Of a DNA stretch of 29,953 bases, positions 4,938 through 29,816 are shown piece by piece. The notes below the pieces were generated by a model, which had not been told where the DNA came from, did no database searches, and saw only the letters and a program-made list of their open reading frames with translations. A program made the translations under genes and the position numbers. Every line of letters starts with the position of its first letter. Within the stretch, counting starts at the first letter, position 1. Source of the stretch: a virus; IMG/VR virus record IMGVR_UViG_3300042197_003688, positions 1 through 29,953 of that record; one strand, given 5' to 3'.

Positions 4938-5542
4938 GTTATAACGTAATCAATAATGAGGCATTTTCTCGGTGTAGATCTCACCGGATATACTCCATGG
5001 AAAACATCTCCTTTAGCTATTATACACTTTCCCGCCTCAGGAAGTAAAGCCTTGTAACAAGGCGGATTGCCATCTGTCATAAAGGCATAAAAGGCCCCGT
5101 GTAAAAAGCCCTTGCCGTCTGAATCATCTTCTTTTACAGCATCAGTATATATGACCTGAGTAATGCATTTTTTACCATGGCTATGTACGCTTTGCCATCC
5201 ACCAGTTTTATACTCCATCATCCAACTTACAGCCGGCTCTATATCATAATAAAGACAATTTTCATAAAGTCTTTTCCTAGTCCATTTTGCTATCTTTTGA
5301 ATTGTGTTTTCTAATTCTTGAGAATTGTCTATATCGGAATCATTAAAAGGTCTATGATTAATCCTTTTAGACATTATAGGATCTCGCCATATAGGAAATT
5401 GTAAAGAATTAAGTGCTGATGTTTCGAAACTATAATCCTTTTCTGGATCTTTGTCCATGAAGGATTTTAGACTTTCGTAGTCTTGATAATGTGTGTCGAG
5501 CAAAAACTGATTTCCACAGATATAAAGATTATTTTCGATCAT
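4934..5542 (-). CDS. putative 2OG-Fe(II) oxygenase
   Basis: A 202-residue protein whose second half looks like a double-stranded beta-helix dioxygenase. H120 and H122 lie in VHSHGKK, followed by strands. H182 and R192 lie in a C-terminal block (GDVFHGVYPVRSTPRK), with the spacing expected for the distal iron histidine and the 2-oxoglutarate-binding arginine. An H-x-H rather than H-x-D arrangement is seen, so iron ligation is not certain. The start at 5542 was chosen because its ATG overlaps the carbamoyltransferase stop (ATGA); a start 12 codons upstream would overlap that gene by 40 bases. Family members hydroxylate proteins, nucleic acids or small molecules. Placement between carbamoyltransferase and helicase genes makes DNA or protein modification possible but unproven. 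Confidence 0.6.
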   Translation of the reverse strand: MIENNLYICGNQFLLDTHYQDYESLKSFMDKDPEKDYSFETSALNSLQFPIWRDPIMSKRINHRPFNDSDIDNSQELENTIQKIAKWTRKRLYENCLYYDIEPAVSWMMEYKTGGWQSVHSHGKKCITQVIYTDAVKEDDSDGKGFLHGAFYAFMTDGNPPCYKALLPEAGKCIIAKGDVFHGVYPVRSTPRKCLIIDYVIT

Positions 5543-6507
5543 TTGATTTTTATATGTTTTGGAACACTGTGATTCCACTTAATTCTGGTCTGTTGAGTAT
5601 AGAGTGCTGCTCCAGTAGCACTACTAGCATCTCCCGGTATAGGCAGACTCCATATACCATCATATTGATGGTCTAATGTTTTATTAAATTTTGAATTCAT
5701 AGCACATCCGCCCATATAAACTAGATTTTTATTAGGTGCTAGTTTGTGCGCCCAACCAAAAACTTTTGTCGCTTGTGCTTCAAATTCTTCTTGTACAGAT
5801 GCTGCTAGATCTTTTTTATCTTGTTCGGTCATTGCTAACAGCGGCCAGTTCCATACTCCTTTATGAAGATTATATCTCATAGTTAAATCATCTCTCCAAT
5901 AATTTTGAACCAATGATCTAAATTTTTTAGGATCTCCCTGCTCGCTTATTTGTTGCAGTATGTGTTCTTCACCTAGAGGTTTTAAACCTATTAAATCAGT
6001 GAATGCTGAATAAAATATTCCAAGACTAGTAGGATATGCTCTGCTAAAAACCTTTTTGAGTTTTAAGCCGTGTCCTTCCCATATGCTGATACTTTCCCAT
6101 TCGCCGATTGCATCTAATACCACTACTGTAGCACTGTCAAAGGGACTAGTGTAGAAACCTGCGGCAGCATGACTTAGATGATGATCAATATATCGTATTT
6201 TAAAATTAGGCCATCCTAATTTTTTAATATATCTTTTAGGCATATCTTCTACATCAAAAGCAGCTCTATATTGTCCTGCATAAAATTGTCGAAACTTTTT
6301 CCATAAAGGACGTTCGTACCAAACGATTTCGTCCGGTCCGGATCCGTTTGATGAATTTAAGGCGTCGCGATAGATCGCACTACAGAGATATTGATCTCCT
6401 ACAACACCAGTATATTCGGAACTTCTTTTCCAAAATCTAAGATCGCCATTGCTAACTACTGCAATACTGGCATCATGATTAAGTGCGTTAATTCCCCAGG
6501 TAATCAT
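5539..6507 (-). CDS. carbamoyltransferase-like protein, Kae1-like domain only
   Basis: A 322-residue protein matching the N-terminal half of NodU/CmcH/TobZ O-carbamoyltransferases. It has WGINALNHDAS at the N-terminus, the DHHLSHAAAGFYTSPFD motif with H109, H110 and H113, SLGIFYSAFTDLIGLKPLGEE, a GGCAMNSKFN segment and a PGDASSATGAAL segment. Full family members have a second, YrdC-like domain that makes carbamoyl-adenylate; nothing after this gene encodes one. The usual KVMGLA stretch reads ILQQIS here, another departure. It may act with a partner, use a ready-made donor, or have a changed activity. It shares ATGA overlaps with the small gene upstream and the oxygenase-like gene downstream. 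Confidence 0.82.
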   Translation of the reverse strand: MITWGINALNHDASIAVVSNGDLRFWKRSSEYTGVVGDQYLCSAIYRDALNSSNGSGPDEIVWYERPLWKKFRQFYAGQYRAAFDVEDMPKRYIKKLGWPNFKIRYIDHHLSHAAAGFYTSPFDSATVVVLDAIGEWESISIWEGHGLKLKKVFSRAYPTSLGIFYSAFTDLIGLKPLGEEHILQQISEQGDPKKFRSLVQNYWRDDLTMRYNLHKGVWNWPLLAMTEQDKKDLAASVQEEFEAQATKVFGWAHKLAPNKNLVYMGGCAMNSKFNKTLDHQYDGIWSLPIPGDASSATGAALYTQQTRIKWNHSVPKHIKIK

Positions 6508-15326: not shown

Positions 15327-16157
15327 TTAAAATCCAGAAAAAATCCTAGAAAATGGCAGGCCCGACTGTATTTCCGGGCCCGTCCATTCGGTATGACATA
15401 ATTTTAAAAACCATTCTTCTCTATCAGGAAGCGTCGGATCTTCTAGATTCTCCCAATGATCTGAAACTGGATGTGCTAAACTGGTTTGATCGCAGATGAT
15501 CGGAGTTCCTTCGACGGCGGCACGCACTGCTGGCCCACTATTGAAATTGATCACACAATGATATGAGTAATCTATATTGAAATCATCGTAGGAGTTTGGT
15601 ATCTTGGTTGGCCGGATCAATTCTGTACCCGGTAAATTTATGTGAAAGGGAGATCGGGGATGAGGCCTAACATCGATCAGCCTATCCGAATACTGCCTTG
15701 CCTTGCTTACCATCGCTGAAACCCATTGCACCATACTAGGCTGACCTTGCCATTGGAGGCTGTGTTCGTGTTGGCAGGCGATTAATATGCGATTTTTTCG
15801 CTTGTCATTGATCGGCTTCAGGACTACTCCTAGTTTTTTAGGTCGATCGGTATCAAGCATACGATCATTGCCAAACTTTCCAAGACCGTGTATATGGTCG
15901 AGGCTCAATCTCCATGTGGAACCACGAAAAAGATTTCCGACTTCGATGATCATCACCGATCTTCCCTGAGACTTGGCTCTCTCAAACACCAATTTATTAG
16001 GTTTCATCCGACCATACCAAAGGACTGACCATATCACATCGACGTCCTGGCCGTCTTCGACCACCGCCATGCCGATATTTTTCAATCCCTGCTCTACAGC
16101 AGCAAAAATCGGTGGACTATTAAGAGCGCCGTGCTCTCTCCATAATTTAAATTTCAT
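15327..16157 (-). CDS. KpsC-like polysaccharide biosynthesis protein 1
   Basis: A 276-residue protein of a family with four members in this island. Its shared core is a strand ending in RPHPRSP (about residues 163-169), an NFNSGPAVRAAVEGTPIICD block and a C-terminal region with W-rich helices. These blocks resemble the second half of GT-B-fold capsule transferases such as KpsC/LpsZ, which move sugars such as Kdo. The N-terminal half is shorter than in full transferases. It is transcribed away from the late promoter at 16165. Its GC content looks somewhat higher than that of the other three. Activity and acceptor are unknown; the class is inferred from motifs. Confidence 0.6.
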   Translation of the reverse strand: MKFKLWREHGALNSPPIFAAVEQGLKNIGMAVVEDGQDVDVIWSVLWYGRMKPNKLVFERAKSQGRSVMIIEVGNLFRGSTWRLSLDHIHGLGKFGNDRMLDTDRPKKLGVVLKPINDKRKNRILIACQHEHSLQWQGQPSMVQWVSAMVSKARQYSDRLIDVRPHPRSPFHINLPGTELIRPTKIPNSYDDFNIDYSYHCVINFNSGPAVRAAVEGTPIICDQTSLAHPVSDHWENLEDPTLPDREEWFLKLCHTEWTGPEIQSGLPFSRIFSGF

Positions 16158-16164
16158 AAGGTTT

Positions 16165-16172
16165 TATAAATA
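16165..16172 (+). promoter_or_regulatory. late promoter motif
   Basis: A perfect TATAAATA, 23 bases before the ATG of the plus-strand gene at 16196. It is flanked by a short inverted repeat (GGTT...AACC). Confidence 0.7.
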
Positions 16173-16195
16173 ACCTAGTATTTAATGATAAAACT

Positions 16196-16591
16196 ATGAG
16201 CAAATTTGCTAAACGGATAAAAAAGTTAAACAAAAAATCTCGAAACATTTTAGTCGCAGGCAGCGCCTGGGGTAATCTGTCGGAATTGATAGATTCGTTC
16301 GGAACTATCTTTCTGATCGATGATAAGAAAAGGATATTGCGTTCAAAGAACATCGTATATCGTGAAAATTTTGATAATATTTCACATCTGTATGATGTCG
16401 ACGTAGTATTGATCGACCTGGATCATGAAAATCACATCACAGAACTTTTACCGCTGTTGAAAAGGTGGAATTCTCTCATAGTCATCGAAGGGCCCGGTCT
16501 GATTTCTCAAGAAAATCAAAAATTCCTTAAATCACATAACTATCAGATTGTAGATGTTCACAAAAATCATTATGTTTGGAAATTAAGATAG
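16196..16591 (+). CDS. small Rossmann-like hypothetical protein
   Basis: A 131-residue alpha/beta protein. After a basic start (KFAKRIKKLNKKSRN) comes a strand-glycine turn (ILVAGSAWGNLSELI), then strands ending in DD (TIFLIDDKKR), VDVVLIDLDHEN and SLIVIEGPGLIS. The order resembles a cut-down class I methyltransferase or nucleotide-binding fold, with AGSAWGN in place of the SAM-binding glycine motif. No catalytic residues can be assigned. It has its own late promoter and precedes the GDP-mannose dehydratase gene, so a role in sugar modification is plausible. Confidence 0.6.
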   Translation: MSKFAKRIKKLNKKSRNILVAGSAWGNLSELIDSFGTIFLIDDKKRILRSKNIVYRENFDNISHLYDVDVVLIDLDHENHITELLPLLKRWNSLIVIEGPGLISQENQKFLKSHNYQIVDVHKNHYVWKLR

Positions 16592-16605
16592 GCCTAACTC
16601 TGTAC

Positions 16606-16613
16606 TATAAATA
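16606..16613 (+). promoter_or_regulatory. late promoter motif for the GDP-mannose dehydratase gene
   Basis: A perfect TATAAATA in the gap between two plus-strand genes. A ribosome site GAGGA (16631-16635) follows just before the ATG at 16640. Confidence 0.78.
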
Positions 16614-16639
16614 AAAAACTAATTTAGCCTGAGGAAAAA

Positions 16640-17653
16640 ATGAAAAAAATTGCATTTGTTACCGGAATGACTGGACAAGACGGTCCGTATCTGGCAAAAC
16701 TGCTGTTGGAAAAAGATTACAAGGTCTACGGCCTGATAAAAAGATATTCTAATCCTAATTTAGACAACATAAGATATCTCGGAATCGAGCATGACATCGA
16801 ATTAATCACTGGTGATATCACCGACGATGGTTGCATGAACCATTTAGTCAAAAGCCTGAAACCTAACGAGTTTTATAATCTCGCTGCTCAGAGTTTCGTA
16901 GGAGCCAGTTGGGATTTAAACAAATTAACCACCGAAGTAAATGCCGTGGGAGTCTTAAATATACTCAACGCTATCAAACAACACAACCCCGACACTAGAT
17001 TTTACCAGGCATCGACGTCTGAAATGTACGGAAACAGCATCGAGATATCCGGCGGGCAACAAGATGAATCTACACCTTTCTGGCCACGTAGTCCGTATGG
17101 TGTTGCTAAACTCTATGCCTATTGGATGACCATAAATTTCCGTGAAAGTTACAGTCTGCATGCATCAAATGGAATATTGTTTAATCACGAATCTCCTATC
17201 CGAGGCAAAGAATTTGTGACTAGAAAGATAACAGACGGCGTGGCAAAGATTAAATGCGGTCTAGCAGACAGTATCACGTTAGGTAATCTAGAAGCCAAGC
17301 GAGATTGGGGATTTGCCGGTGATTTCGTAGAAGCCATGTGGCTGATGTTACAACAAGATGAACCTGGAGACTATGTCGTAGCCACAGGGCAACAATATAC
17401 CATAGGTGATCTATTAGAACGTGCATTTAAATCTGCTGGAATTGATGACTGGCAACAGTATGTTAAAAGTGATCCCAGATTTAAGCGCCCTGCAGAACTT
17501 CATAGTCTTTGCGGAAATCCTGCAAAAGCAGAAAAGACACTTGGATGGCAGCGAAAAACTGATTTCGAAAGCCTCGTTAAGATGATGGTCGAAGCTGATA
17601 TTAAACGTTATAGCAAAGACGCTGGTCTCGATTGGACCTTGCAAACGAGATGA
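16640..17653 (+). CDS. gmd: GDP-mannose 4,6-dehydratase
   Basis: A 337-residue extended short-chain dehydrogenase. The NADP-binding glycine motif is TGMTGQDG (residues 8-15). The catalytic set is T126 with E128 (STSEMYG) and Y153/K157 (YGVAK). LFNHESPIRGKEFVTRKI is the block diagnostic for GMD. The length is slightly below the usual 345-370. It converts GDP-D-mannose to GDP-4-keto-6-deoxymannose, the precursor of fucose, rhamnose, perosamine and other deoxysugars. No dedicated reductase is adjacent; the epimerase-type enzyme at 26063 is a candidate. It has its own late promoter and shares an ATGA overlap with the next glycosyltransferase gene. Confidence 0.95.
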   Translation: MKKIAFVTGMTGQDGPYLAKLLLEKDYKVYGLIKRYSNPNLDNIRYLGIEHDIELITGDITDDGCMNHLVKSLKPNEFYNLAAQSFVGASWDLNKLTTEVNAVGVLNILNAIKQHNPDTRFYQASTSEMYGNSIEISGGQQDESTPFWPRSPYGVAKLYAYWMTINFRESYSLHASNGILFNHESPIRGKEFVTRKITDGVAKIKCGLADSITLGNLEAKRDWGFAGDFVEAMWLMLQQDEPGDYVVATGQQYTIGDLLERAFKSAGIDDWQQYVKSDPRFKRPAELHSLCGNPAKAEKTLGWQRKTDFESLVKMMVEADIKRYSKDAGLDWTLQTR

Positions 17654-18477
17654 TAAAAAAAGCCGTAGTCACGACCTTTCATAAAGAGGGCTATGACAAG
17701 TACGCCAAGAGGATGATACAGACATTCTTAAATACTTGGCCCAGTGACATAACATTATATGCGTATCCTCAAGATCATACCATAGATGAGTCTGCAGAAA
17801 ATCTCGTAGTAAGAGATTTACACGAATCGTGCCCAGATTTAGTGGCTTTTAAAAATCGTTGGAAGGATGATCCCAAGGCCAGGGGTGAGGTAGCGACTGG
17901 TCCGGCCGACCGCAAGGGCAAACAACCAGGAATTGGGTTTAGGTGGGATGCTATTCGATTTAGTCATAAGATCTATTCTGTTTGCCATGCTGCTCGAAAC
18001 ACCGAGGCTGACCTATTGCTGTGGATGGATGCTGATATGATCTGCCATACTTCTATTCCGCATCATTTTATCGATAGAATGTGCCAACCTCATATTGGTC
18101 TAGGATTTTTAGGCAGAGAAAGGAAATTTACCGAATGTGGTCTTTACTCTATGAATCTTCGAGATAAAAATACACAGAAATTTTTATCAGAATTCCAACA
18201 GGCCTATGACAGCGGTCGCCTCTTCCAGTTCAGCGAGTGGAATGATTGTTGGGTGTTTGACGAAGTACGCAAAGAAGTCAAGCAACATCATCCTGAATGG
18301 CAGTGGAACGATTGGTGTCATGGGTTAATCAAAGATGAAGGCCATCCATTGGTTAACAGTGAGTGGGGCGCTTATCTAGATCACTTGAAAGGTAATCGAA
18401 AAAATCACGGTAAAAGTCTAAAAAGTGATTTTATACGACCACGTACCGAAAAATATTGGATCAGTCATCAGAATTAA
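17650..18477 (+). CDS. DxD glycosyltransferase, family member 1
   Basis: A 275-residue protein starting AVVTTFHKEGYDKYAKRMI, with a DAD metal/nucleotide-sugar motif at 127-129 (LWMDADMICH) and a C-terminal GAYLDHLKG...GKS block. Two other genes here (18461-19177 and 24730-25449) share the N-terminal pattern, the DAD motif and the C-terminal block, so they form a family of GT-A-like transferases. The start at 17650 overlaps the dehydratase stop (ATGA); a longer start six codons upstream is less likely. The 3' end overlaps the convergent gene by 17 bases. Donor and acceptor are unknown; coupling to GMD suggests a GDP-deoxysugar donor. Confidence 0.75.
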   Translation: MIKKAVVTTFHKEGYDKYAKRMIQTFLNTWPSDITLYAYPQDHTIDESAENLVVRDLHESCPDLVAFKNRWKDDPKARGEVATGPADRKGKQPGIGFRWDAIRFSHKIYSVCHAARNTEADLLLWMDADMICHTSIPHHFIDRMCQPHIGLGFLGRERKFTECGLYSMNLRDKNTQKFLSEFQQAYDSGRLFQFSEWNDCWVFDEVRKEVKQHHPEWQWNDWCHGLIKDEGHPLVNSEWGAYLDHLKGNRKNHGKSLKSDFIRPRTEKYWISHQN

Positions 18478-19177
18478 ATTCGGCCTTGCTGTGTTTGGCT
18501 TTATAATGCTCCATGTAAGATCCTAAAACTGTGTGTCGCATTGGAGTCTTATAGGGTTTAGTAAAATTTTTGCAAAGATCTAACCCGTCTGCCTCTGTTT
18601 GTTCAAAGACATATCCATAAACATCGTTGTCAAAAAATCTTCTTAACATTTGATAGTCCTGTTCAACATAGTGGCGTCTATATTCTTTTTTAAACTGGTC
18701 AAATAATTTATGTTTTGTATTAATCGCAAAAAACCCAGTTTCGGGAACGAACCATCTTCCCGGTGAACCATCTTTGGCTGTCTGATAAGTGACTCCCATG
18801 TGGGTACTTAACACATTTTTTGGTAATAAGGATTCTATAAACGCTCTGTCTATAAAATTTGTGTGTAAAACATCTGCATCGAGCCAAATGATGCGATCGG
18901 CATCAGAATTGTACATTGCATGTATGAAACTCCATGCCTTTTTAGCGAATTTCTTTACTTGTTTCTTAGAGATTTTTTGGAATTCAAAATATTCTTTTTC
19001 AAACTCTTCGAATGATATCTGTTTTATCCTATGAGCATCCGATAATCTAAATCCTTCGACATAACAGGTCAGTGTCATATCTTTGGGCCAATATTTCAAC
19101 CAAGATTCGGTAGCATCTTTGCCTATAAGATCATAATAGGGTTGATTAAAACTAGTAATAATTTCTATGTTAAGCAT
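18461..19177 (-). CDS. DxD glycosyltransferase, family member 2
   Basis: A 238-residue paralogue of the gene at 17650: IEIITSFNQPYYDLIGKDATESW at the start, a DAD motif near residues 100-102 (IIWLDADVLH), a conserved aromatic block (GFFAINTKHKLF) and GSYMEHYKAKHSK at the end. It is the last gene of the seven-gene minus-strand glycan operon, overlapping the KpsC-like gene by eight bases. Its 3' end runs into the convergent plus-strand gene with no terminator between. Expected to be a cytosolic sugar transferase; specificity unknown. Confidence 0.72.
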   Translation of the reverse strand: MLNIEIITSFNQPYYDLIGKDATESWLKYWPKDMTLTCYVEGFRLSDAHRIKQISFEEFEKEYFEFQKISKKQVKKFAKKAWSFIHAMYNSDADRIIWLDADVLHTNFIDRAFIESLLPKNVLSTHMGVTYQTAKDGSPGRWFVPETGFFAINTKHKLFDQFKKEYRRHYVEQDYQMLRRFFDNDVYGYVFEQTEADGLDLCKNFTKPYKTPMRHTVLGSYMEHYKAKHSKAEFNSDD

Positions 19178-20105
19178 AATTCCTCATATGACTCCAACAT
19201 TCTCCGTTGGCGATTTCGTCCAAATTCCAATGGGACATCGCCAATCGTTCTACCCATCGCTGACGGTAAAATAATTCTGGATTTTCTATTTTAGAAAGAT
19301 CCGTGTTTGCGATTTCTCGGCACTGACTTCGTTCGGGGTCAGTAACAAATATCGGACAACCTTCAATGGCGGCACCTACTGCAGGACTAGAATTATGATT
19401 GACAACTGCCCAGCATTTATGAAGATCATCTAATAATCTAACATTCGGTTTAGATAATCTTACATTTTTAAGAATACCTATTTTATTCATAAGATTTTTT
19501 GGATTGAGATAAGATGCCGAGCCTTTATCTCCGGGATGTGCTCTAATTACGATCTCTCTATCAGTATACTTTCGTAATTCTCTGACGGTGGCAGCAGTCC
19601 AATCTACAACGTCATATCCTCCCATGCTCCAGCCACCATTCCGTTGTAAACATAGAAGTATATGGTGCCCATTTTTCCTATAATCTTTAAGACTTAGTCC
19701 CATATCTTTAGAAATTTTTTCCCATCTATTAGGATCGGGGTTATTGTCGCAGTATATTCCAGTATTAGGAAAAACGCCATCAAAACTATATCTTAGATAA
19801 TATTTGGGATTATCTGGAGTATTATAAAGAAATAGATTACTATCCGCAATGACCGTATGTTTTTTCATCGCTGCTTGCCGATCTAACACCTGCTTTCTTA
19901 ATATTAGATGAGGTGTGTTTTTAGAATCTTCATGAACGTATCCTAAAATCATAGCGACATCAGCGTCGACAATGTTCATATCGGTATGAAGCACTAAATG
20001 ATCTTTGCAGGCTATCACACCTTGCGAAAATTTATGAAGTACTTCTGCTTTTCGAGTATCTTGCCCCTTTTTAGGAAGACATGAAAGATATGTGACAAAT
20101 TTCAT
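19170..20105 (-). CDS. KpsC-like polysaccharide biosynthesis protein 2
   Basis: A 311-residue member of the four-gene family. The shared blocks are VIRAHPGDKGSA, VNHNSSPAVGAAIEGCPIFVTD, IENPELF and a C-terminal LAMSHWNLDEIANGECWSHM. The first part includes a strand pattern with DVAMILGYVHED and a GGWSMGGYDVVDW segment, as in GT-B folds. It shares ATGA with the gene before it, so translation is probably coupled. Related to capsule transferases of the KpsC/LpsZ type by its C-terminal half; sugar and acceptor not known. Confidence 0.62.
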   Translation of the reverse strand: MKFVTYLSCLPKKGQDTRKAEVLHKFSQGVIACKDHLVLHTDMNIVDADVAMILGYVHEDSKNTPHLILRKQVLDRQAAMKKHTVIADSNLFLYNTPDNPKYYLRYSFDGVFPNTGIYCDNNPDPNRWEKISKDMGLSLKDYRKNGHHILLCLQRNGGWSMGGYDVVDWTAATVRELRKYTDREIVIRAHPGDKGSASYLNPKNLMNKIGILKNVRLSKPNVRLLDDLHKCWAVVNHNSSPAVGAAIEGCPIFVTDPERSQCREIANTDLSKIENPELFYRQRWVERLAMSHWNLDEIANGECWSHMRNYA

Positions 20106-21085
20106 TTTTTCTTCTTTTTATTGTCTTCGGGGAGATCACGTTCATGCTGTATATTTTCGATTATAGGACAAAGATGTGCCCAAGCTATTCCTTCTTTCAT
20201 TTCGTCAACACTCCATTGGGAATAGGCTAATTTTAACAACCATCTTTTGATTTCAACATCGGCGGGCATATATAAAGAATTTATTTCCTCTGGATAATGC
20301 GAACTGATATCAAAGGCGAAATTTCCCGGGTCTGTGGCGATAGTCGGTATACCGAACAATATAGAATCTATAGCAGAACCGCTGCTATAGGTTATCGAAC
20401 AATAGGCATTTTCCAAAGTTTTTTGCAGAGTGACTTCTTTTGGATCTACGAAATCAATATTTTCGATTTTCTTCTTATGTAAATCAAAGAAAAAGTCATA
20501 GAATTCTTCTCCGGTACGGAGAGGTGCTAATGGATGCGGTCTAACTATGATCTTTCGATCTGTGTGTAATCTTAAGTTTTCTATAATATGTTTGGCCCAA
20601 TTATATACATTGGCTCCGCGCAAAGATGCATCGGCCGGTAATTGTAGCAGAACCACGATATGTCCCGATTCTTTAAAATCCCAGCCTCCCCAACTGACCC
20701 CAAGTTTTTGTAGCCTAGATTCGTCATAATTTTTTGTAAGATCAACAAATGTCGCTTGATTATTCAAAAATCCATTAACACCAATTCTATAGTAAATATT
20801 TTCTTCGTGTACTTGCCTATTCAATAACGGTGTTTCAATGCAGATAAAAGCCTTGGAATTAAATGCGATACTAGATCTTACCAAGTGGTGACCTTTTTCT
20901 CTGGCTTTCCAAGATCCCATCATTAATGCGACATCGCAAGGTACATACGCTTCGTTTAGATCGTAATCAATCTCATATTCTAATCCTTGTTCTCGAGAGT
21001 ATCGATCGATACCTTCGGTAAATTTCATTAATATCTGCTGTTCTCCGAAATCTCTAGCAGTCTGTATAAACGATCTAATTTTCAT
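20102..21085 (-). CDS. KpsC-like polysaccharide biosynthesis protein 3
   Basis: A 327-residue relative of its two neighbours: DVALMMGSWKARE, SWGGWDFKESGHIVVLLQLP, IIVRPHPLAPL, ITYSSGSAIDSILFGIPTIATD, and the C-terminal LAYSQWSVDEMKEGIAWAHL. The tail is strongly basic (KKKKK). Compared with the others, the NS motif before the small-residue helix reads SS. It overlaps the previous gene by eleven bases and shares ATGA with the next. Probably a sugar transferase or polysaccharide-handling protein; the duplication of this family may mean each copy adds a different residue. Confidence 0.62.
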   Translation of the reverse strand: MKIRSFIQTARDFGEQQILMKFTEGIDRYSREQGLEYEIDYDLNEAYVPCDVALMMGSWKAREKGHHLVRSSIAFNSKAFICIETPLLNRQVHEENIYYRIGVNGFLNNQATFVDLTKNYDESRLQKLGVSWGGWDFKESGHIVVLLQLPADASLRGANVYNWAKHIIENLRLHTDRKIIVRPHPLAPLRTGEEFYDFFFDLHKKKIENIDFVDPKEVTLQKTLENAYCSITYSSGSAIDSILFGIPTIATDPGNFAFDISSHYPEEINSLYMPADVEIKRWLLKLAYSQWSVDEMKEGIAWAHLCPIIENIQHERDLPEDNKKKKK

Positions 21086-21881
21086 TTAGTATTCTCCAAG
21101 CGGTGCCATCTTTTAATTCATTGATATGAAATTGACCATAGGCGAGATGGCAGGCCCATGCATATAATTTTTCTTTATCGGGAAAATAGGGATTTTCTAT
21201 CTGGCTTAGATCTTGAGAAGTGACTGGTTTAGCGGCATGTGTGGGGGAAAGAGTGAATGCAGGGTATCCATACATCACGGCTTCGGTGGCTGCATTGCTG
21301 TTGAAGGTTACAAGACAATGAGTATCATCATCCAAGACCTCCTTCAGAGAATTATTGTGCATCCGTTCTACTCTGCTTTTTACTCGTTCTCTAATTACTA
21401 TAGGTCTATGGGTATATCGCTTGATAGTATCGATGGTTTCTTGCAACCAATCTTCCAATTCTAGACCGTAAAATGTCATAGGTTTTTCGTCTGGCTTAGC
21501 AATAACGATCTTCTTACCTCCTCGCTTCCGAGGATAAAGTGGTATGGCCAATCGTTTGAATCTATCATCAGGGCGAGGTATTATTTCAGCATCATGTTGT
21601 AGATCATTTTTAACGATTCTGTGATAATATTTCCACCCCATAGGATTGATAGCACTGCGTTGATTTCCCATATAGCCAGTATCCATAAAATAAAAATCTC
21701 TGTTATACAACCAACATTTTTTCATTATTTTATGTTTTAGTATTCCCCGGAGGACTATAGGATCTTCCGAATCATTATATTCAAAGTCGTCGGTGTTAAT
21801 TACCCGGCCGCCGCTGCCTATAGCGAACATATTAATGTACTCGTCCTTGCCATCCTTGCTTAAGAAAATCCAATTGTTCAT
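21075..21881 (-). CDS. KpsC-like polysaccharide biosynthesis protein 4
   Basis: A 268-residue family member, more divergent: IVIRERVKSRV replaces the RPHP block, followed by LVTFNSNAATEAVMYGYPAFTL and the shared C-terminal YAWACHLAYGQFHINELKDGTAW. The loss of the RPHP motif may alter activity. The start at 21881 overlaps the stop of the methyltransferase gene (ATGA); an ATG seven codons upstream lies inside that gene. It begins the run of three consecutive paralogues in this operon. Confidence 0.6.
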   Translation of the reverse strand: MNNWIFLSKDGKDEYINMFAIGSGGRVINTDDFEYNDSEDPIVLRGILKHKIMKKCWLYNRDFYFMDTGYMGNQRSAINPMGWKYYHRIVKNDLQHDAEIIPRPDDRFKRLAIPLYPRKRGGKKIVIAKPDEKPMTFYGLELEDWLQETIDTIKRYTHRPIVIRERVKSRVERMHNNSLKEVLDDDTHCLVTFNSNAATEAVMYGYPAFTLSPTHAAKPVTSQDLSQIENPYFPDKEKLYAWACHLAYGQFHINELKDGTAWRILNEN

Positions 21882-22543
21882 TCTAGGATCCTTATCGAAC
21901 ATTGTTGATATCTGTTTCTGTAGATGACTTCAAATTTCCTATCATATTTTTCAACCCATTCTTTTAATGCTCGATATTCTCCTTGTTCCCATAGATCGTA
22001 TTTCTCAATACCAGACCAAGGATAAAACTCGTCAAATATTATTACAGTTCCCTCAACGATATAAGAGTTTAAAAGATTAAAAATAGTTTTGGTGCTAGAA
22101 TATAAATCACAATCAATATGAAGTATTGATATCTGTTTTATTGGATTTTCATCAAGCCATTTAGGTACACTTTGATCGAAAAAGCCTTTTACTAATTTTA
22201 CATTGTTAGGAACCTGGGGAAGTTCATCGAGTGCAAAGTATCCGGCAGGTCTTGTTGATACTTGATCGCTGGCATTAAGAAACCAATCTTCAGGTAGGCC
22301 TTCAAAACTGTCGAACCCCCATAAAATTTTGTTAGGAAAACCTCCCGCGAGATGGGTAATAGTTTTTCCCTGGTACACACCAAATTCTAGTATTTCACCT
22401 TCTATCATTGGCAATTTACAAATCGATTGTAAATGCTTTTTTCGTTCAATGCCAGTGCTTTTAAAATCCTTAGTAGGAATAGGAGCTGTGTGAAACGGTT
22501 CTATAGAGAAATTATTTTTTGTTATTAAATCTGGTAGACTCAT
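21878..22543 (-). CDS. TylF/MycF-family sugar O-methyltransferase
   Basis: A 221-residue class I methyltransferase. The SAM-binding motif is LEFGVYQGKT (about residues 52-61), followed by WGFDSFEGLPEDW and LHIDCDLYSSTK (141-152) with D144 and D146. IIFDEFYPW adds D171 and E172, the metal-binding set of the TylF family. TylF and MycF methylate sugar hydroxyls on macrolides, and relatives methylate O-antigen sugars. Here it should methylate a sugar of the glycan built by its operon partners. It follows the glycosyltransferase gene directly with no gap. Confidence 0.85.
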   Translation of the reverse strand: MSLPDLITKNNFSIEPFHTAPIPTKDFKSTGIERKKHLQSICKLPMIEGEILEFGVYQGKTITHLAGGFPNKILWGFDSFEGLPEDWFLNASDQVSTRPAGYFALDELPQVPNNVKLVKGFFDQSVPKWLDENPIKQISILHIDCDLYSSTKTIFNLLNSYIVEGTVIIFDEFYPWSGIEKYDLWEQGEYRALKEWVEKYDRKFEVIYRNRYQQCSIRILE

Positions 22544-23215
22544 TTAATTTAACATATCCTTCAAATAGGTTTTCCATACCTGGTGATACTCGCAATGGCG
22601 ATAATCTTTAAACCACGGACCACCCTCAGTATAATGTAGGGCCTTAGGAAAACCGTCTGTCGGTTCTTGATACCAATTAACTAACCAATTCCATTCGTGT
22701 GTGATTGAACCGATTTCTTCATCTTTTAACCACTGGAATCGATGTAGATACTGACCTGTTTCTTCGTTAACTGTTTTTAGATCGAGTTTCTGATTCGATA
22801 TATGGCCACAATTCCATAAAATTAATGAACTCCAATTTTTTCGAGGATAAGGCAATTGTCGGCAGCCATCCATCTTCACCCCTTCCTTGGGAGTATAATC
22901 ATGCTTGACTACCATAGCAGCGTAACGGTCATCGGCGAGATCAAATAACTCAGAAATATCCGTGGTCCACAGAAAATCACAATCGCAAAATATTGCCCAT
23001 CCTGTGTAATCTGAAAGGTAAGGAACGAGAAATCTAGTAAATGTAAATTCAGTCGAACCGAGATTATCAACAGAGCGTTGATATATTCCAGAATCTCTCA
23101 GATCTTTTTGTTTGAGAGGAATAACTTCTGCGTTTGGTTGGTGTTTTAAGATACTGTATTCGCAGACCTGATAAGTAATATCTTCTCTAGTATCGTATCC
23201 TACAAATACTTTCAT
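22544..23215 (-). CDS. glycosyltransferase (GT8-like)
   Basis: A 223-residue protein beginning MKVFVGYDTRE, with SILKHQPNAEVIPL, STEFTFTRFLVPYL and a DCD motif in AIFCDCDFLW, then a C-terminal ALHYTEGGPWFKDY. The layout is that of GT-A enzymes of the GT8 type, in which DxD binds metal and sugar nucleotide and the HxxGxxKPW-like C-terminus closes over it. The start at 23215 forms an ATGA overlap with the fusion enzyme gene. A longer reading from 23308 adds 31 residues that have no matching pattern and lie in that gene, so it was rejected. A GGAGG lies about 13 bases upstream. Confidence 0.8.
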   Translation of the reverse strand: MKVFVGYDTREDITYQVCEYSILKHQPNAEVIPLKQKDLRDSGIYQRSVDNLGSTEFTFTRFLVPYLSDYTGWAIFCDCDFLWTTDISELFDLADDRYAAMVVKHDYTPKEGVKMDGCRQLPYPRKNWSSLILWNCGHISNQKLDLKTVNEETGQYLHRFQWLKDEEIGSITHEWNWLVNWYQEPTDGFPKALHYTEGGPWFKDYRHCEYHQVWKTYLKDMLN

Positions 23216-23982
23216 CGTCTTTCTATATCCTCCTCGACACACCGTTCGCCGTATTGAATTTCGATCATCTTCAACGGCGCTGTTCCCTCGTTGGCTAATT
23301 GATGCCATTCAGTTCGCTCGATATGTACATGATCAAACTTATTGTAAACTCCTAATAATTCCGCATCAGTTTTTCTATTTAAAGTGTATACCGTAGCCAC
23401 GCCTTCTGCGACAAACCAATGTTCTGCCCGATCTTTGTGTCTTTGCATACTTAAATGTTTTCCTGGTTCCACGATTAATTCTTTTAATTTGACTTGAGCA
23501 TTGTTTTCGTGTAGCACACGATAATATCCCCATTGCCGTTCGGTCTTAGGTGCCTTCCATTCTTGTAATATCCAAGAACTAGAATTCATTTTATGTTCGC
23601 CACCAGTTCCAAACTCAAATTCTAAATTGGATATTTCGCCTAACATTTCCATTTCTGGAATATTTGCGTTTGTTCGATCACCGCCGTTAGCGAAAATTAT
23701 TTTGTCATCGGGATAGATTTGTCTGACTTTTCTGATAGCATCTTTTGCACTGCCGTCGGTATCATCAAAATTGATCACTCGATCGACACTTTTCATAGAA
23801 GAAATAACAGAAGCACGCTCTTCCCAAGGCATAAATTCTCGACCCTTCTTTCGTCGTAGCCATTCATCGGAATTGGCACCGACTACTAAAATGTCTCCTA
23901 ATTTTTTTGCTTCTCGAATATATGCGACATGTCCAGAATGTAGAGGATCGAAGCCTCCGGTAACAATTATAATCTTTTTCAT
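23212..23982 (-). CDS. fused sugar-phosphate nucleotidyltransferase and type II phosphomannose isomerase cupin
   Basis: A 256-residue two-domain enzyme. Residues 1-130 are a cytidylyltransferase-like domain with GGFDPLHSGH (9-18), as in glycerol-3-phosphate cytidylyltransferase and the heptose-1-phosphate adenylyltransferase half of HldE. Residues 150-256 form a cupin like the C-terminal domain of ManC-type enzymes: LSMQRHKDRAEHW (178-190) and an ending IEIQYGERCVEEDIER, close to the usual IEVQxGxYLGEDDIxR. Type II PMI domains interconvert fructose-6- and mannose-6-phosphate and are normally fused to a GDP-mannose pyrophosphorylase, not to this domain. The protein may make an activated heptose or alditol and mannose-6-phosphate. 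It heads the seven-gene operon, with a late promoter five bases before its ATG. Confidence 0.85.
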   Translation of the reverse strand: MKKIIIVTGGFDPLHSGHVAYIREAKKLGDILVVGANSDEWLRRKKGREFMPWEERASVISSMKSVDRVINFDDTDGSAKDAIRKVRQIYPDDKIIFANGGDRTNANIPEMEMLGEISNLEFEFGTGGEHKMNSSSWILQEWKAPKTERQWGYYRVLHENNAQVKLKELIVEPGKHLSMQRHKDRAEHWFVAEGVATVYTLNRKTDAELLGVYNKFDHVHIERTEWHQLANEGTAPLKMIEIQYGERCVEEDIERR

Positions 23983-23987
23983 ATGAA

Positions 23988-23995
23988 TATTTATA
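23988..23995 (-). promoter_or_regulatory. late promoter motif for the minus-strand glycan operon
   Basis: A perfect TATAAATA on the minus strand ends five bases before the ATG at 23982, so transcription would start at or near the start codon. It may be a real leaderless late promoter or a chance AT-rich match; no ribosome binding site is seen between motif and ATG. Confidence 0.5.
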
Positions 23996-24022: not shown

Positions 24023-24733
24023 ATGAAAGAAAAAAATAATGTGCTGCCTTATGAAGAAAAGATATTTTCTCAGCACAGAGAAGACGGAATAATTCAAAAA
24101 TTATTGTCATTTTCTGATAATCAAAATAAGATTGCGGTAGAAATCGGTTCAGGAAACGGACAAGAAAACATGATCAAGAATTTAGTAGTTAATCACGGGT
24201 TTATTGGGTATGGTCATGATCTTCAAGAAAGTAAGTTTATCCATAAAAATTATTATCACAGAGTTGGATTGGTTACTCTCGAAAATTTATCAGACATGCT
24301 CAAAACAATTCCCACGATGACTCCTTCATTCTTTAGTCTAGACATTGATAGTTATGATTTTTGGATTATGAAATCTTTGTTAAAAGATTACAATTTTCGT
24401 CCTTCTATAATTTGTGCAGAATACCTTTGTTATTTCGGCGATAGTTTAAAATGTGCAGTAAAATACGGGTTATCTAAATATTCATTTAAAAAATGTGGGT
24501 CGAGTCTCGCAGCCTATCAGGAATTATTATTAAGATATAATTATAAATTTTTTACCTGTGACACGCGAGGAGTTAATTCTTTTTTCTATCTGGCCGAGTC
24601 CGTCGAGGAAACTGAAGAATTTACGAATTTACCAAGACATAAATTTACTTTTATGCCAAAATACAAACATCTCACGAATATAGATTTAAATGATCCTATG
24701 ATCGAATTTGACGAAAAAAGGTTGTTTGAATGA
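24023..24733 (+). CDS. FkbM-type methyltransferase
   Basis: A 236-residue class I methyltransferase: SQHREDGIIQKLL, then VEIGSGNGQEN (about residues 39-49) for SAM binding, SFFSLDIDSYDFWIMKSLL (102-120) and PSIICAEYLCYF. This is the pattern of FkbM-like enzymes found in polysaccharide clusters. The ATG at 24023 was preferred over a TTG at 24008, which adds only five residues; neither has a strong ribosome site. Its stop overlaps the next start (TGA/ATG). The gene and the next two are clearly more AT-rich than the rest of the window. Confidence 0.72.
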   Translation: MKEKNNVLPYEEKIFSQHREDGIIQKLLSFSDNQNKIAVEIGSGNGQENMIKNLVVNHGFIGYGHDLQESKFIHKNYYHRVGLVTLENLSDMLKTIPTMTPSFFSLDIDSYDFWIMKSLLKDYNFRPSIICAEYLCYFGDSLKCAVKYGLSKYSFKKCGSSLAAYQELLLRYNYKFFTCDTRGVNSFFYLAESVEETEEFTNLPRHKFTFMPKYKHLTNIDLNDPMIEFDEKRLFE

Positions 24734-25449
24734 TAGTAGTTTCAACTCTAAGCGAAGATAATTATAATACCTACGCATTAAAAACTATACCTACCTGGTT
24801 AACATTTTTCCCCCCAGAAACTCGTTTTATGATACATTGTGATTTTGATCTTCCTCTAGAGGACAAAAGAATACAATGTTTTCCTTCTTCCGAACAAAAA
24901 TTAGAATTTATAGAAAGAAATAGAGAGATATCAAGAACAAATATACCAATCAAAGGATATGCTACTAGATGGGATGTTTATTGCCATAAAGTTTTTGCTC
25001 AATGTGAATCTGCCTTAATGCTAACCGACGAAATAATGATTTTCATCGATGCTGATGTTGCGCTTCTAAGAAATGTAGACGAAACTGTTATTTCAAATTT
25101 TTTAAAAGACGTATTTTGTTCTTACGTTTCGAGAGTTAACGAAGGAACTGAAACAGGATTAATTTTTTATAATTTGGGACTAGATGAAAATAAAAGTTTT
25201 TTTAAAAGTTACTTGGACATATATCTTTCCGATAGATTATTTGATTTTATCCGATGGGACGATTGCTATATTTTTGATCATCTTAGGTCTCAATCAGAAT
25301 TAAATTTCGTCAGCATGTCCGGGGATTACGATTTTTTTATTGATCCTATATCAGTAGGACCATTAGGGGAATATTTTGATCATTGGTTAGGAAAATTAAG
25401 TAAACTTAGAGGTTATTCAAAACATAGAAAATTTAGAGGAAAACTATGA
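24730..25449 (+). CDS. DxD glycosyltransferase, family member 3
   Basis: A 239-residue AT-rich gene whose product resembles the transferases at 17650 and 18461: IVVSTLSEDNYNTYALKTI at the start, IFIDADVALL with a DAD at 107-109, an aromatic RWDDCYIFDHL block and a C-terminal GEYFDHWLGKLSKLRGYSK. It overlaps both neighbours by four bases (ATGA), making a translationally coupled trio. Probably a GT-A-type sugar transferase acting on the same glycan; donor and acceptor unknown. Confidence 0.72.
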   Translation: MIVVSTLSEDNYNTYALKTIPTWLTFFPPETRFMIHCDFDLPLEDKRIQCFPSSEQKLEFIERNREISRTNIPIKGYATRWDVYCHKVFAQCESALMLTDEIMIFIDADVALLRNVDETVISNFLKDVFCSYVSRVNEGTETGLIFYNLGLDENKSFFKSYLDIYLSDRLFDFIRWDDCYIFDHLRSQSELNFVSMSGDYDFFIDPISVGPLGEYFDHWLGKLSKLRGYSKHRKFRGKL

Positions 25450-27477: not shown

Positions 27478-27714
27478 TTATTCCTCATCGTCGGTGTAAT
27501 CTTCATATTCTTCTTCGATCTCTTCGTCATCGATAGCGTAGTCGATGGCTTCGTCTAGATGGTCATCTATTCCTAATAGGCTCTGCAGTGTAGATTCTTT
27601 GATTCCATAGTCTAATAGAGTGTTTACGAATCCAGATGCTACGTCGGCTCTAGATTTTTCAGGGATATGTTCTACGACCAGTGTCCAAATATCTGCGATT
27701 AAATCTTCTTTCAT
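27478..27714 (-). CDS. small acidic protein between uvsX and uvsY
   Basis: A 78-residue protein with a helical first half (LIADIWTLVVEHIPEKSRADV, then FVNTLLDYGI) and an extremely acidic tail of about 25 residues (DDEEIEEEYEDYTDDEE). The start overlaps the uvsX stop by four bases. Small acidic proteins at this place are common in marine T4-like phages; function unknown. The tail could mimic DNA or bind a recombination partner (inference). Confidence 0.75.
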   Translation of the reverse strand: MKEDLIADIWTLVVEHIPEKSRADVASGFVNTLLDYGIKESTLQSLLGIDDHLDEAIDYAIDDEEIEEEYEDYTDDEE

Positions 27715-28790
27715 TCCACGCTCTCCGGTTGGGGTTCAACATTATTAGTTATCTCAGATGATGTATTTTCTGTGGCTTTAGAAAAATTTATCATCAATTG
27801 ATCGAGACAACCATTTTCGTTGCGCTCCCATTCTTTGCGATAGAACTTAAGGATTTCCCCATCCGGTGTGGTATAGGACAGTCTGTTACCATCTTTTACC
27901 AATATGCCTTTGGCTTCAGAGAGATCGACTAGTCCACTATAAGGATTCATGCCAGTTTCGTAGGGTATCTTGACCTGTACCGATTCAAAGGGTTTAGCAT
28001 AGCGTGTCTTCATGATCTTGCAGGCAGCACGGATACCTTTGACTTCTGAGATCTTGTTGCCATCTTCGTCTTCTTTGAGCTTGAGTTTCTTCATCGCCAC
28101 GACGATAGATGAGGCATAGATGAAACCTTGGCCGCCTGAGATCTTGTCGTCGGGATCGAACATGTCTTGGCTGGCATAGGTATGGTTAGTTGCTACCAAC
28201 CCGATATTTAGTGAACCGAACATGTTAACACAGTTACGGACCAATGCGGTCAATGCCTTAGGCTTACGGCCCATGTCGCCTTTCAAATCGCCTGCTTCAA
28301 ATTGATTGACATCTGTGGGAGTCAGCAACATGCCCAGGCTGTCCAGCACGAACAAGATCTTTGGACGACCGTCTTCGGGCATGGCCTTGTATTCTGCGAC
28401 AAATTCTGTGATGGTTTTGGCCACATCGTCGATCATGGCCATGTTGAGTTTCAGCAGTTTATCTTCTGCGGTATCGACCCCCAATGCCTTGAGCCAATCT
28501 TCATCTAAGGCATTTTCTGAATCGATCAAGATAGGATAGATGCCTTGCGATTGTGCGGCTTTGATAAGGTTACCGGAACAGATGTAGGATTTGCCTGCAC
28601 CACTTTCACCTGCGAATACCGTGACTTTGCCCAGTGGAACTCCGCGATGGAAGTCACCGCTGATCAGATAGTTCAGAGCATAGTTTCCTGTCGAAACCCA
28701 ATCTGTGGGATCATTGAAACCGATGCTGAGTCCTTCGATGCTCTTAGTAATACTTTTTCGAAACTTGCTTATATCAAATGCTTTTGCCAT
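27711..28790 (-). CDS. uvsX: UvsX RecA-like recombinase
   Basis: A 359-residue RecA-family protein (T4 UvsX has 391). Walker A GESGAGKS is at residues 61-68, Walker B is in ILFVLDSLGML (about 145-155), and the DNA-binding loop region includes LVATNHTYASQDMFDP and ISGGQGFIYASSIVV. It forms filaments on single-stranded DNA and catalyses strand invasion, which starts recombination-dependent replication in T4-like phages. A TAGGA ribosome site lies about eight bases before the ATG. The gp32 terminator hairpin lies upstream, so reads through it or a separate start supply uvsX mRNA. Confidence 0.96.
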   Translation of the reverse strand: MAKAFDISKFRKSITKSIEGLSIGFNDPTDWVSTGNYALNYLISGDFHRGVPLGKVTVFAGESGAGKSYICSGNLIKAAQSQGIYPILIDSENALDEDWLKALGVDTAEDKLLKLNMAMIDDVAKTITEFVAEYKAMPEDGRPKILFVLDSLGMLLTPTDVNQFEAGDLKGDMGRKPKALTALVRNCVNMFGSLNIGLVATNHTYASQDMFDPDDKISGGQGFIYASSIVVAMKKLKLKEDEDGNKISEVKGIRAACKIMKTRYAKPFESVQVKIPYETGMNPYSGLVDLSEAKGILVKDGNRLSYTTPDGEILKFYRKEWERNENGCLDQLMINFSKATENTSSEITNNVEPQPESVE

Positions 28791-28850: not shown

Positions 28851-29816
28851 TCACTGACCCTGTCTGGCGCGGATCTTGGCAAGGATATCTTGTGCCCTAG
28901 ATGCGCTTTCTGTATTGGCAGGTGCGGCCGCAGGCTTTGACACCGTAGCAGGCTCATCATCGACTTCATCATCGGACACCGTTGGTTTCGCCACGGTCTT
29001 GTTAGGATCTCCGGTGGCCGAACCCATTCCGGCAGGTTTGAAATATTGACCCCAACGATCCATATCGTAGGCTTCGCCGTCGACTGATGCTTCGAACATC
29101 TCTTTCATTACTTTCAGTTCGACATCGGTTGGCTTCTTAGGAAGGAAATCCGATAGATTAAACAGGCCATATTGATCGATGGCTGCTTTCTCTTGATCAG
29201 TTAAAGATCTTTCACGACGACTCCACTTAGAAGTAGAATAGTCTGCGAATCCGCCCTTGCTGGTCTTTGCGATGCGGAAATCAACACCACGGAGGAAATC
29301 GGTTGGCAGTTCTTCCAACTCTGGATCCATCAGTGCAGAACGAATGATCTGATAGATCTGAGGTCCGATGATAAATCTACGGATTGGATTATCCGGAGTA
29401 GAATCTTCTTTGAGAGGATCTTCTACAACAAAACCTTGGAAGATGTATGAACGCTTCTTCCAATACTTACGACCCATTTCTTCGAGGTTCTTGTCTTTGA
29501 ACCAACCACGGACTTCTGAAAGGATCGGACAGGCTGTGCCATCATTGTACATTTCCACACAGGGGACCTGTACCTGTACCGCACGGCTGTCTGTTTCTCC
29601 TTTGACACCTGCGAACGGCAGTTTGATCATCGCACGTTCTACCCAGAAGAATGTGTTGTTGGCGTTGCCGTCAGGAAGGAAACGGACCACCGCTTCTTTG
29701 CCTTCTTGCATGTTCCAATGGGGATAAATCGCGTTGTCTCCACCGCCTGTGGAGTTGCCTGTGGTTTTGTTTTGTGCTTCTTGAAGTTTAGCACGGATCT
29801 CTGCTAGTGTTGCCAT
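28851..29816 (-). CDS. 32: single-stranded DNA-binding protein gp32
   Basis: A 321-residue protein (T4 gp32 has 301). It has a basic N-terminal region for cooperative binding (AEIRAKLQEAQNK), an OB-fold core (about 30-230) with the NIxxNFFWVERAM-like strand NANNTFFWVERAMIK, and an acidic, Ala/Pro-rich C-terminal arm (DDEVDDEPATV...) for protein partners. The zinc ribbon of T4 gp32 uses one His and three Cys; here only C86 and C96 are visible, so zinc binding may be lost or different. Strong AAGGAGG ribosome site. It has its own promoter with an overlapping palindrome. It coats single-stranded DNA during replication and recombination. Confidence 0.94.
   Translation of the reverse strand: MATLAEIRAKLQEAQNKTTGNSTGGGDNAIYPHWNMQEGKEAVVRFLPDGNANNTFFWVERAMIKLPFAGVKGETDSRAVQVQVPCVEMYNDGTACPILSEVRGWFKDKNLEEMGRKYWKKRSYIFQGFVVEDPLKEDSTPDNPIRRFIIGPQIYQIIRSALMDPELEELPTDFLRGVDFRIAKTSKGGFADYSTSKWSRRERSLTDQEKAAIDQYGLFNLSDFLPKKPTDVELKVMKEMFEASVDGEAYDMDRWGQYFKPAGMGSATGDPNKTVAKPTVSDDEVDDEPATVSKPAAAPANTESASRAQDILAKIRARQGQ

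What the first reader, a model, noticed from the sequence alone, without database searches (positions are those of the whole stretch)
23212..23982. Unusual fusion of an HldE-type nucleotidyltransferase with a phosphomannose isomerase cupin
Type II PMI cupins are classically fused behind a GDP-mannose pyrophosphorylase. Here the partner is a small GGFDPLHSGH cytidylyl/adenylyltransferase domain. The two together might make a new activated sugar or couple supply of mannose-6-phosphate to glycan assembly.
Basis: partly seen in the sequence, partly recalled or inferred. Interest (0 to 1): 0.6.

Follow-up and report, generated by a model that had tools for sequence, protein, structure and literature searches.

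The report
Unusual two-part mannose-activation enzyme in phage
A phage gene fuses a mannose-phosphate isomerase to an unexpected kind of nucleotide-attaching enzyme; the same fusion is common in the abundant ocean bacteria SAR11 and SAR86, where it sits in the place of the standard enzyme that makes GDP-mannose, so it probably is their way of activating mannose, although no activity has been measured.

Summary
The fusion is real. It lies on the minus strand: one 256-aa ORF (23212-23982) with an HldE/TagD-like nucleotidyltransferase (PF01467, residues 1-143) and a type II phosphomannose-isomerase cupin (PF01050, 147-255). It is not a one-off: 572 IMG/VR stretches encode relatives, and at least 319 stretches of GTDB genomes do, mostly SAR86 and SAR11. 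No isolated phage in INPHARED carries the fused form. The best-supported function is an analogue of the bifunctional GMP-PMI enzyme (ManC/AlgA) in which the usual guanylyltransferase domain is replaced by an unrelated nucleotidyltransferase. In 199 SAR86-order genomes, 109 carry fusion-type ORFs and 18 carry canonical GMP-PMI; none carries both (P=2e-7). GDP-mannose dehydratase (GMD) occurs in 27 fusion and 6 GMP genomes, but in 3 with neither. Fusion and GMD lie within 50 kb in 20 of 27 genomes, four times within 3 kb, where GMP genomes have cpsB. A complete SAR86 genome has PMM, GMD and Fcl but no recognisable GMP and no other strong PMI. The window's phage also carries GMD. The ADP-heptose reading fails: most fusion genomes lack GmhA and the HldE kinase. 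The nucleotide (GTP assumed) and the sugar remain inferred; nothing was assayed.

The parts
23212..23982 (-). NTase-cupin fusion ORF, 256 aa
23554..23982 (-). Nucleotidyltransferase domain, residues 1-143: GGFDPLHSGH (HxGH motif, residues 9-18), FANGGDR (97-103), KxNSSSWIL (131-139)
   Evidence: PF01467, phrog_7878; best PDB folds 3glv Z 16.6, TagD 2b7l Z 15.6, HldC 5xf2 Z 15.1; motif residues invariant or nearly so in A3
23218..23544 (-). Type II PMI cupin, residues 147-255, with the QxHxxRxExW...H...N...E...G...ExDI.R set
   Evidence: PF01050 E 1e-22; best cupin folds are the phosphomannose isomerases 7zvy Z 16.2 and 7zvm Z 15.8; residues shared with E. coli CpsB PMI domain
22544..23215 (-). 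Downstream GT8-like glycosyltransferase; its ATG overlaps the fusion's stop (ATGA), so the two are probably translationally coupled
   Evidence: sequence; PF01501 E 6e-4 below cut-off, phrog_28018 E 6e-55; adjacent to the fusion in many phage loci
16640..17653 (+). GDP-mannose 4,6-dehydratase (GMD), consumer of GDP-mannose on the same phage
   Evidence: TIGR01472 411 bits (cut-off 415), PF16363 E 8e-119; 42% identical to E. coli Gmd
23988..23995 (-). TATAAATA, T4-type late-promoter-like box 5 bases before the fusion's ATG
   Evidence: the count in the window is not above chance, but all four copies lie just upstream of a gene on the same strand
16606..16613 (+). TATAAATA box 26 bases before the GMD start
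15327..23215 (.). Glycan island next to the fusion: GMD, GT8-like, TylF-like methyltransferase, and four copies of an unclassified ~275-327 aa family (15327-16157, 19170-20105, 20102-21085, 21075-21902)

Best explanation
The protein is a bifunctional mannose-activating enzyme that works like ManC/AlgA/CpsB (GMP-PMI). Its C-terminal cupin interconverts fructose-6-P and mannose-6-P. A host phosphomannomutase makes mannose-1-P. The N-terminal HxGH nucleotidyltransferase then joins mannose-1-P to a nucleotide, most likely GTP, to give GDP-mannose. The first and third steps of the pathway are thus in one chain, as in ManC, but the third step is done by a domain unrelated to the GT-A-type GMP domain. 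In the phage the product would feed the phage's own GMD and glycosyltransferases for late glycan modification. Shown: the architecture, the conserved motifs of both domains, the folds, mutual exclusion with GMP-PMI, co-occurrence and linkage with GMD/Fcl, and no recognisable GMP in a complete genome. Inferred: both activities, mannose-1-P as substrate, GTP as nucleotide, the role in infection.
For: (1) 199 SAR86-order genomes: 109 with fusion-type ORFs, 18 with GMP-PMI, 0 with both, hypergeometric P 2.2e-7. (2) 36 genomes have GMD: 27 with fusion, 6 with GMP, 3 with neither; Fisher P 8e-5, or 1.7e-4 within GMP-less genomes. (3) Distance fusion to GMD: 4/27 under 3 kb, 12/27 under 25 kb, 20/27 under 50 kb. 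Gene order: cpsB beside fcl and/or gmd in GMP genomes (L331-L333), fusion near gmd-fcl in fusion genomes (L325-L329). (4) Complete SAR86 genome CP097973.1: E. coli CpsB finds only the fusion's cupin, while PMM-like (34%), Gmd (59%) and Fcl (43%) are present; its four PF00483 proteins are RmlA, GalU, GlmU and a MurU-like protein. (5) Eight SAR11 genomes: six with a full-length GMD, none with GMP, fusion present in all. (6) No type I PMI in 22 of 24 fusion genomes; the fusion is the only strong type II cupin in most. (7) Catalytic-type residues of the PMI cupin are kept; nearest cupin folds are archaeal PMIs. (8) Window-type phages carry fusion plus GMD.
Against: No activity is known for any member. 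To my knowledge no HxGH-family enzyme uses GTP with a sugar-1-P; the closest solved relatives use ATP or CTP. 82 fusion genomes have no GMD (they could use GDP-mannose directly, or be incomplete). Cyanophages carry the stand-alone nucleotidyltransferase without the cupin; S-SCSM2R and single-cell virus AG-345-D19 hold a separate PMI too, P-TIM68 and S-SSM7 do not. The MurU-like protein of SAR86/SAR11 scores below its cut-off and could supply GMP activity. Mutual exclusion is not corrected for phylogeny, many genomes are single-cell or metagenome assemblies, and fusion in most of the 109 was judged by ORF length and cupin match; architecture was read directly in a subset.
Confidence: 0.6

Rival explanations
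1. Heptose enzyme: the cupin isomerises sedoheptulose-7-P in place of GmhA and the HldE-like domain makes ADP-heptose from heptose-1-P.
For: The best NCBIfam match of the NTase domain is HldE domain II (79 bits) and a near structural match is HldC; the two isomerisations are chemically alike; phage annotations call such proteins heptose enzymes, and pelagimyophages are reported to carry 'rfaE' (PMC7029224).
Against: HldE kinase (strong TIGR02198) in only 5 of 24 fusion genomes; strong GmhA in about 8 and in only 2 of 8 SAR11. Score far below the HldE cut-off (79 vs 181.5). Linkage is to GMD/Fcl.
Confidence: 0.1
2. PMI plus an unrelated nucleotidyltransferase: the cupin is the genome's PMI, which alone explains exclusion of GMP-PMI, while the NTase activates something else such as an alditol phosphate; GDP-mannose is made by a MurU-like protein.
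For: TagD-like fold; stand-alone NTase in cyanophages, apart from any glycan cluster; MurU-like protein below its family cut-off with weak similarity to guanylyltransferase models; many fusion genomes lack GMD.
Against: The fusion sits where cpsB sits beside gmd-fcl. In G017 and G014 the MurU-like gene lies beside an AmgK-like kinase gene, as expected for murein recycling (kinase identity by position and my own knowledge).
Confidence: 0.2
3. The phage copies have drifted: the NTase still works but the phage and SAR86 cupin is a sensor or another sugar isomerase or epimerase, not a PMI.
For: Phage and SAR86 cupins replace the usual PxxxxHRLEN and YGR features with WHQLxN and lack the C-terminal YGR tail kept by some SAR86 fusions.
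Against: The residue set shared with bona fide PMIs is intact in all.
Confidence: 0.1

Closest known systems
Bifunctional mannose-1-P guanylyltransferase/PMI (ManC, AlgA, CpsB, XanB; TIGR01479)
   Same: C-terminal type II PMI cupin; two steps of GDP-mannose synthesis presumed in one chain; similar place beside gmd/fcl in SAR86; mutually exclusive distribution
   Different: N-terminal domain is an HxGH-superfamily nucleotidyltransferase (PF01467) of about 140 aa instead of the about 350 aa GT-A guanylyltransferase
HldE C-domain / HldC (heptose-1-P adenylyltransferase)
   Same: Closest curated family of the NTase domain; its substrate also has the manno configuration (own knowledge)
   Different: Well below the family cut-off; FANGGDR and NSSS motifs; heptose pathway partners mostly absent
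TagD glycerol-3-phosphate cytidylyltransferase
   Same: Same fold, Z 15-16
   Different: 48.6 bits against a cut-off of 165.4; lipid/teichoic pathway
Monofunctional cyanophage MPI (S-SCSM1, PMC9602691)
   Same: Phage-borne type II PMI cupin; that phage also carries GMD and GDP-fucose synthase
   Different: Not fused to a nucleotidyltransferase; only about 30% identical to this cupin
Stand-alone cyanophage nucleotidyltransferase (P-TIM68, S-SSM7, S-SCSM2R)
   Same: 49-54% identical to the NTase domain by tblastn, same FxNGGDR and NSSSW motifs
   Different: No cupin; sits beside DNA polymerase and/or UvsX

Membership tests
GMP-PMI (TIGR01479 equivalog) | GT-A guanylyltransferase N-domain | tested here: not met
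   only model positions 359-460 match; N-domain is PF01467
GMP-PMI (TIGR01479 equivalog) | whole-protein score above 372.95 bits | tested here: not met
   74.1 bits
GMP-PMI (TIGR01479 equivalog) | both activities, PMI and GMP | not testable with these tools
   needs enzyme assay
Type II PMI cupin (PF01050) | profile match over the curated cut-off | tested here: met
   80.6 vs 23.6 bits
Type II PMI cupin (PF01050) | conserved QxHxxRxExW, H, N, E, G, ExD[IV]xR residues | tested here: met
   invariant with E. coli CpsB and other PMIs in A4
Type II PMI cupin (PF01050) | cupin fold nearest to a solved PMI | tested here: met
   7zvy Z 16.2, 7zvm Z 15.8, the two best cupin rows; other cupins follow within about 1 Z unit, at 15.4 and below
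HldE domain II (TIGR02199) | score above 181.5 bits | tested here: not met
   79.1 bits
HldE domain II (TIGR02199) | heptose kinase and GmhA in the same genome | tested here: not met
   absent in most bacterial carriers; not testable in the phage's unknown host
TagD (TIGR01518) | score above 165.4 bits | tested here: not met
   48.6 bits
HxGH cytidylyltransferase-like superfamily (PF01467) | HxGH motif and a Ser/Thr-rich second motif | tested here: met
   HSGH 15-18 and NSSS 133-136 conserved

The most novel reading that the evidence does not exclude
A nucleotidyltransferase of the HxGH superfamily is the true mannose-1-phosphate guanylyltransferase of SAR11 and SAR86: a non-homologous replacement of ManC's catalytic domain, fused to the same PMI cupin, and spread into T4-like phages as a late-expressed GDP-mannose module together with GMD.
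Probability: 0.5. Interest if true: 0.75.

Novelty: new variant of a known kind. Interest (0 to 1): 0.55.

Why it matters
If right, it fills a missing step (how SAR11 and SAR86 make GDP-mannose and GDP-fucose for surface glycans), corrects annotations that call these proteins heptose or glycerol-phosphate enzymes, and shows an enzyme architecture re-invented with an unrelated catalytic domain. It would also explain part of the carbohydrate gene cargo of aquatic T4-like phages. It is testable with one protein in laboratory E. coli.

Tried and rejected
Chance or artefact: rejected (conserved over hundreds of loci). ADP-heptose pathway: tested with GmhA and HldE-kinase profiles, not supported. 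Phage-only novelty: rejected, bacterial carriers are common. Operon evidence inside SAR11: the gene is fixed between polA and an MFS transporter in the listed SAR11 loci, which says nothing on function. Sigma-70 promoter scan: at chance level. TATAAATA count: not enriched in the window (4 vs 2.5 expected); only its placement is suggestive. tRNA search: none. Co-occurrence of the stand-alone cyanophage NTase with GMD: not seen among the 60 GMD records listed of 83, so no support from there. phmmer of the cupin alone against PDB sequences: no significant hit; only the fold search found PMIs. Literature (9 searches in open-access PMC): no paper found describing the fusion or the missing GMP of SAR11/SAR86; subscription papers were not covered.

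Full report
Observation. The ORF is real and on the minus strand: 23212-23982, 256 aa. Pfam places PF01467 at residues 7-102 and PF01050 at 147-255, both above their cut-offs. The Pfam match to the first domain stops early; the second conserved motif, KxNSSSWIL at 131-139, lies just before the cupin, so the whole nucleotidyltransferase is present. The gene ends in an ATGA overlap with a GT8-like gene.

Setting. The window is an IMG/VR virus record. It has T4-type genes: a UvsX/RecA-like protein at 27711-28790 and a gp32-like protein at 28851-29816; helicase, UvsW-like and primase-like ORFs are my reading of the sequences. Beside the fusion lie GMD, an NAD-dependent epimerase, methyltransferases, GT8-like genes and several unclassified families. 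In other phages the fusion sits either after the 151-aa gene next to UvsX, followed by the same unclassified families, or alone in another conserved block without sugar genes.

Distribution. 572 IMG/VR stretches encode relatives; the 80 best match essentially the whole length. No INPHARED phage has both domains in one place. In GTDB genomes, 319 or more stretches encode relatives, and all 80 loci kept match nearly the whole query; they are mainly SAR86 and SAR11. A tree of 70 sequences gives a well-supported phage group (with one Rhodobacteraceae-binned contig), a SAR11 clade and two SAR86 types. The fusion is therefore old and shared, not made in this phage.

What it does. Three readings were tested by genome content. 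(a) ADP-heptose: in 24 carrier genomes a strong HldE-kinase match exists in 5 and strong GmhA in about 8, only 2 of them SAR11; rejected as the general function. (b) PMI: type I PMI is absent in 22 of 24 and the fusion is the only strong type II cupin in most. (c) GDP-mannose: canonical GMP is absent in all SAR11 and SAR86 carriers of that set, yet full-length GMD, which needs GDP-mannose, occurs in many of them.

The larger test used 199 genomes of the SAR86 order. The GMP-PMI profile separates canonical GMP proteins from fusion-size ORFs. 18 genomes have the former, 109 the latter, none both. Of 36 genomes with GMD, 33 have one of the two. Fusion and GMD are physically close far more often than chance. 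Where read directly, cpsB lies beside fcl and/or gmd in GMP genomes and the fusion lies near gmd-fcl in fusion genomes. The eight type-b fusions read (L247-L254) confirmed that 250-270 aa ORFs with a canonical cupin are also fusions. The complete genome CP097973.1 was read whole: E. coli CpsB matches only the fusion's cupin, while PMM-like, Gmd and Fcl are found; the four GT-A nucleotidyltransferases are RmlA, GalU, GlmU and a MurU-like protein.

Structure. The model's NTase domain is nearest to 3glv, TagD and HldC, its cupin to two archaeal phosphomannose isomerases. The PMI residue set is shared with E. coli CpsB. HldE-type enzymes act on a sugar-1-phosphate of manno configuration (own knowledge), so mannose-1-P is a small step in substrate; the anomer and the nucleotide would have to differ, which is the weakest link.

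In the phage. Window-type phages carry GMD with the fusion (window, L357, L358; cut copies at the locus ends in L002, L003, L030). All four TATAAATA boxes in the window stand 5 to 43 bases before a gene on the same strand, two of them before the fusion and GMD. This hints at late expression and thus at modifying glycans of the virion or the cell late in infection; it is a weak inference.

Relation to known work. Monofunctional PMI, GMD and GDP-fucose synthase are described in cyanophage S-SCSM1, and MPI genes are said there to be frequent in viral metagenomes (PMC9602691). Pelagimyophages are reported to carry rfaE among LPS genes (PMC7029224). GDP-mannose dehydratases were noted in a SAR86 hypervariable region (PMC3569297). 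I found no description of the fusion's function.

Limits. No biochemistry; no phylogenetic correction; assemblies are often incomplete; PMC open-access only. The MurU-like protein is the main alternative source of GDP-mannose.

Noticed in passing
window 15327-16157, 19170-21902: Four copies of an unclassified 275-327 aa protein family without Pfam matches, three in tandem; the family recurs beside the fusion in 38 of 80 phage loci (107 members), perhaps glycosyltransferases.
   Followed up: partly
window 24730-25449, 17632-18477, 18461-19177: A second recurrent unclassified family (three copies here, in 23 of 80 phage loci) in the same island.
   Followed up: no
window 8444, 16165, 16606 (+) and 23988 (-): All four TATAAATA boxes of the window lie 5-43 bases upstream of an ORF on the same strand, as T4 late promoters would.
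   Followed up: partly
window 5539-6507: Carbamoyltransferase N-domain protein (PF02543, E 6e-27) in a phage, next to a 2OG-Fe(II) oxygenase-like ORF (4934-5578).
   Followed up: no
L095, L096, L137 and other SAR11 loci: The fusion is fixed between DNA polymerase I (polA) and an MFS transporter in SAR11, but moves between many chromosomal sites in SAR86.
   Followed up: partly
L171 7992-8453, L172 8001-8459: Cyanophages carry the nucleotidyltransferase alone directly or almost directly after the DNA polymerase gene; role unknown.
   Followed up: partly
L123 (Candidatus Neomarinimicrobiota contig, 335 kb): A bacterial-binned contig carries the fusion followed by the same unclassified families as the phage island: phage-bacterium sharing or mis-binning.
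   Followed up: no
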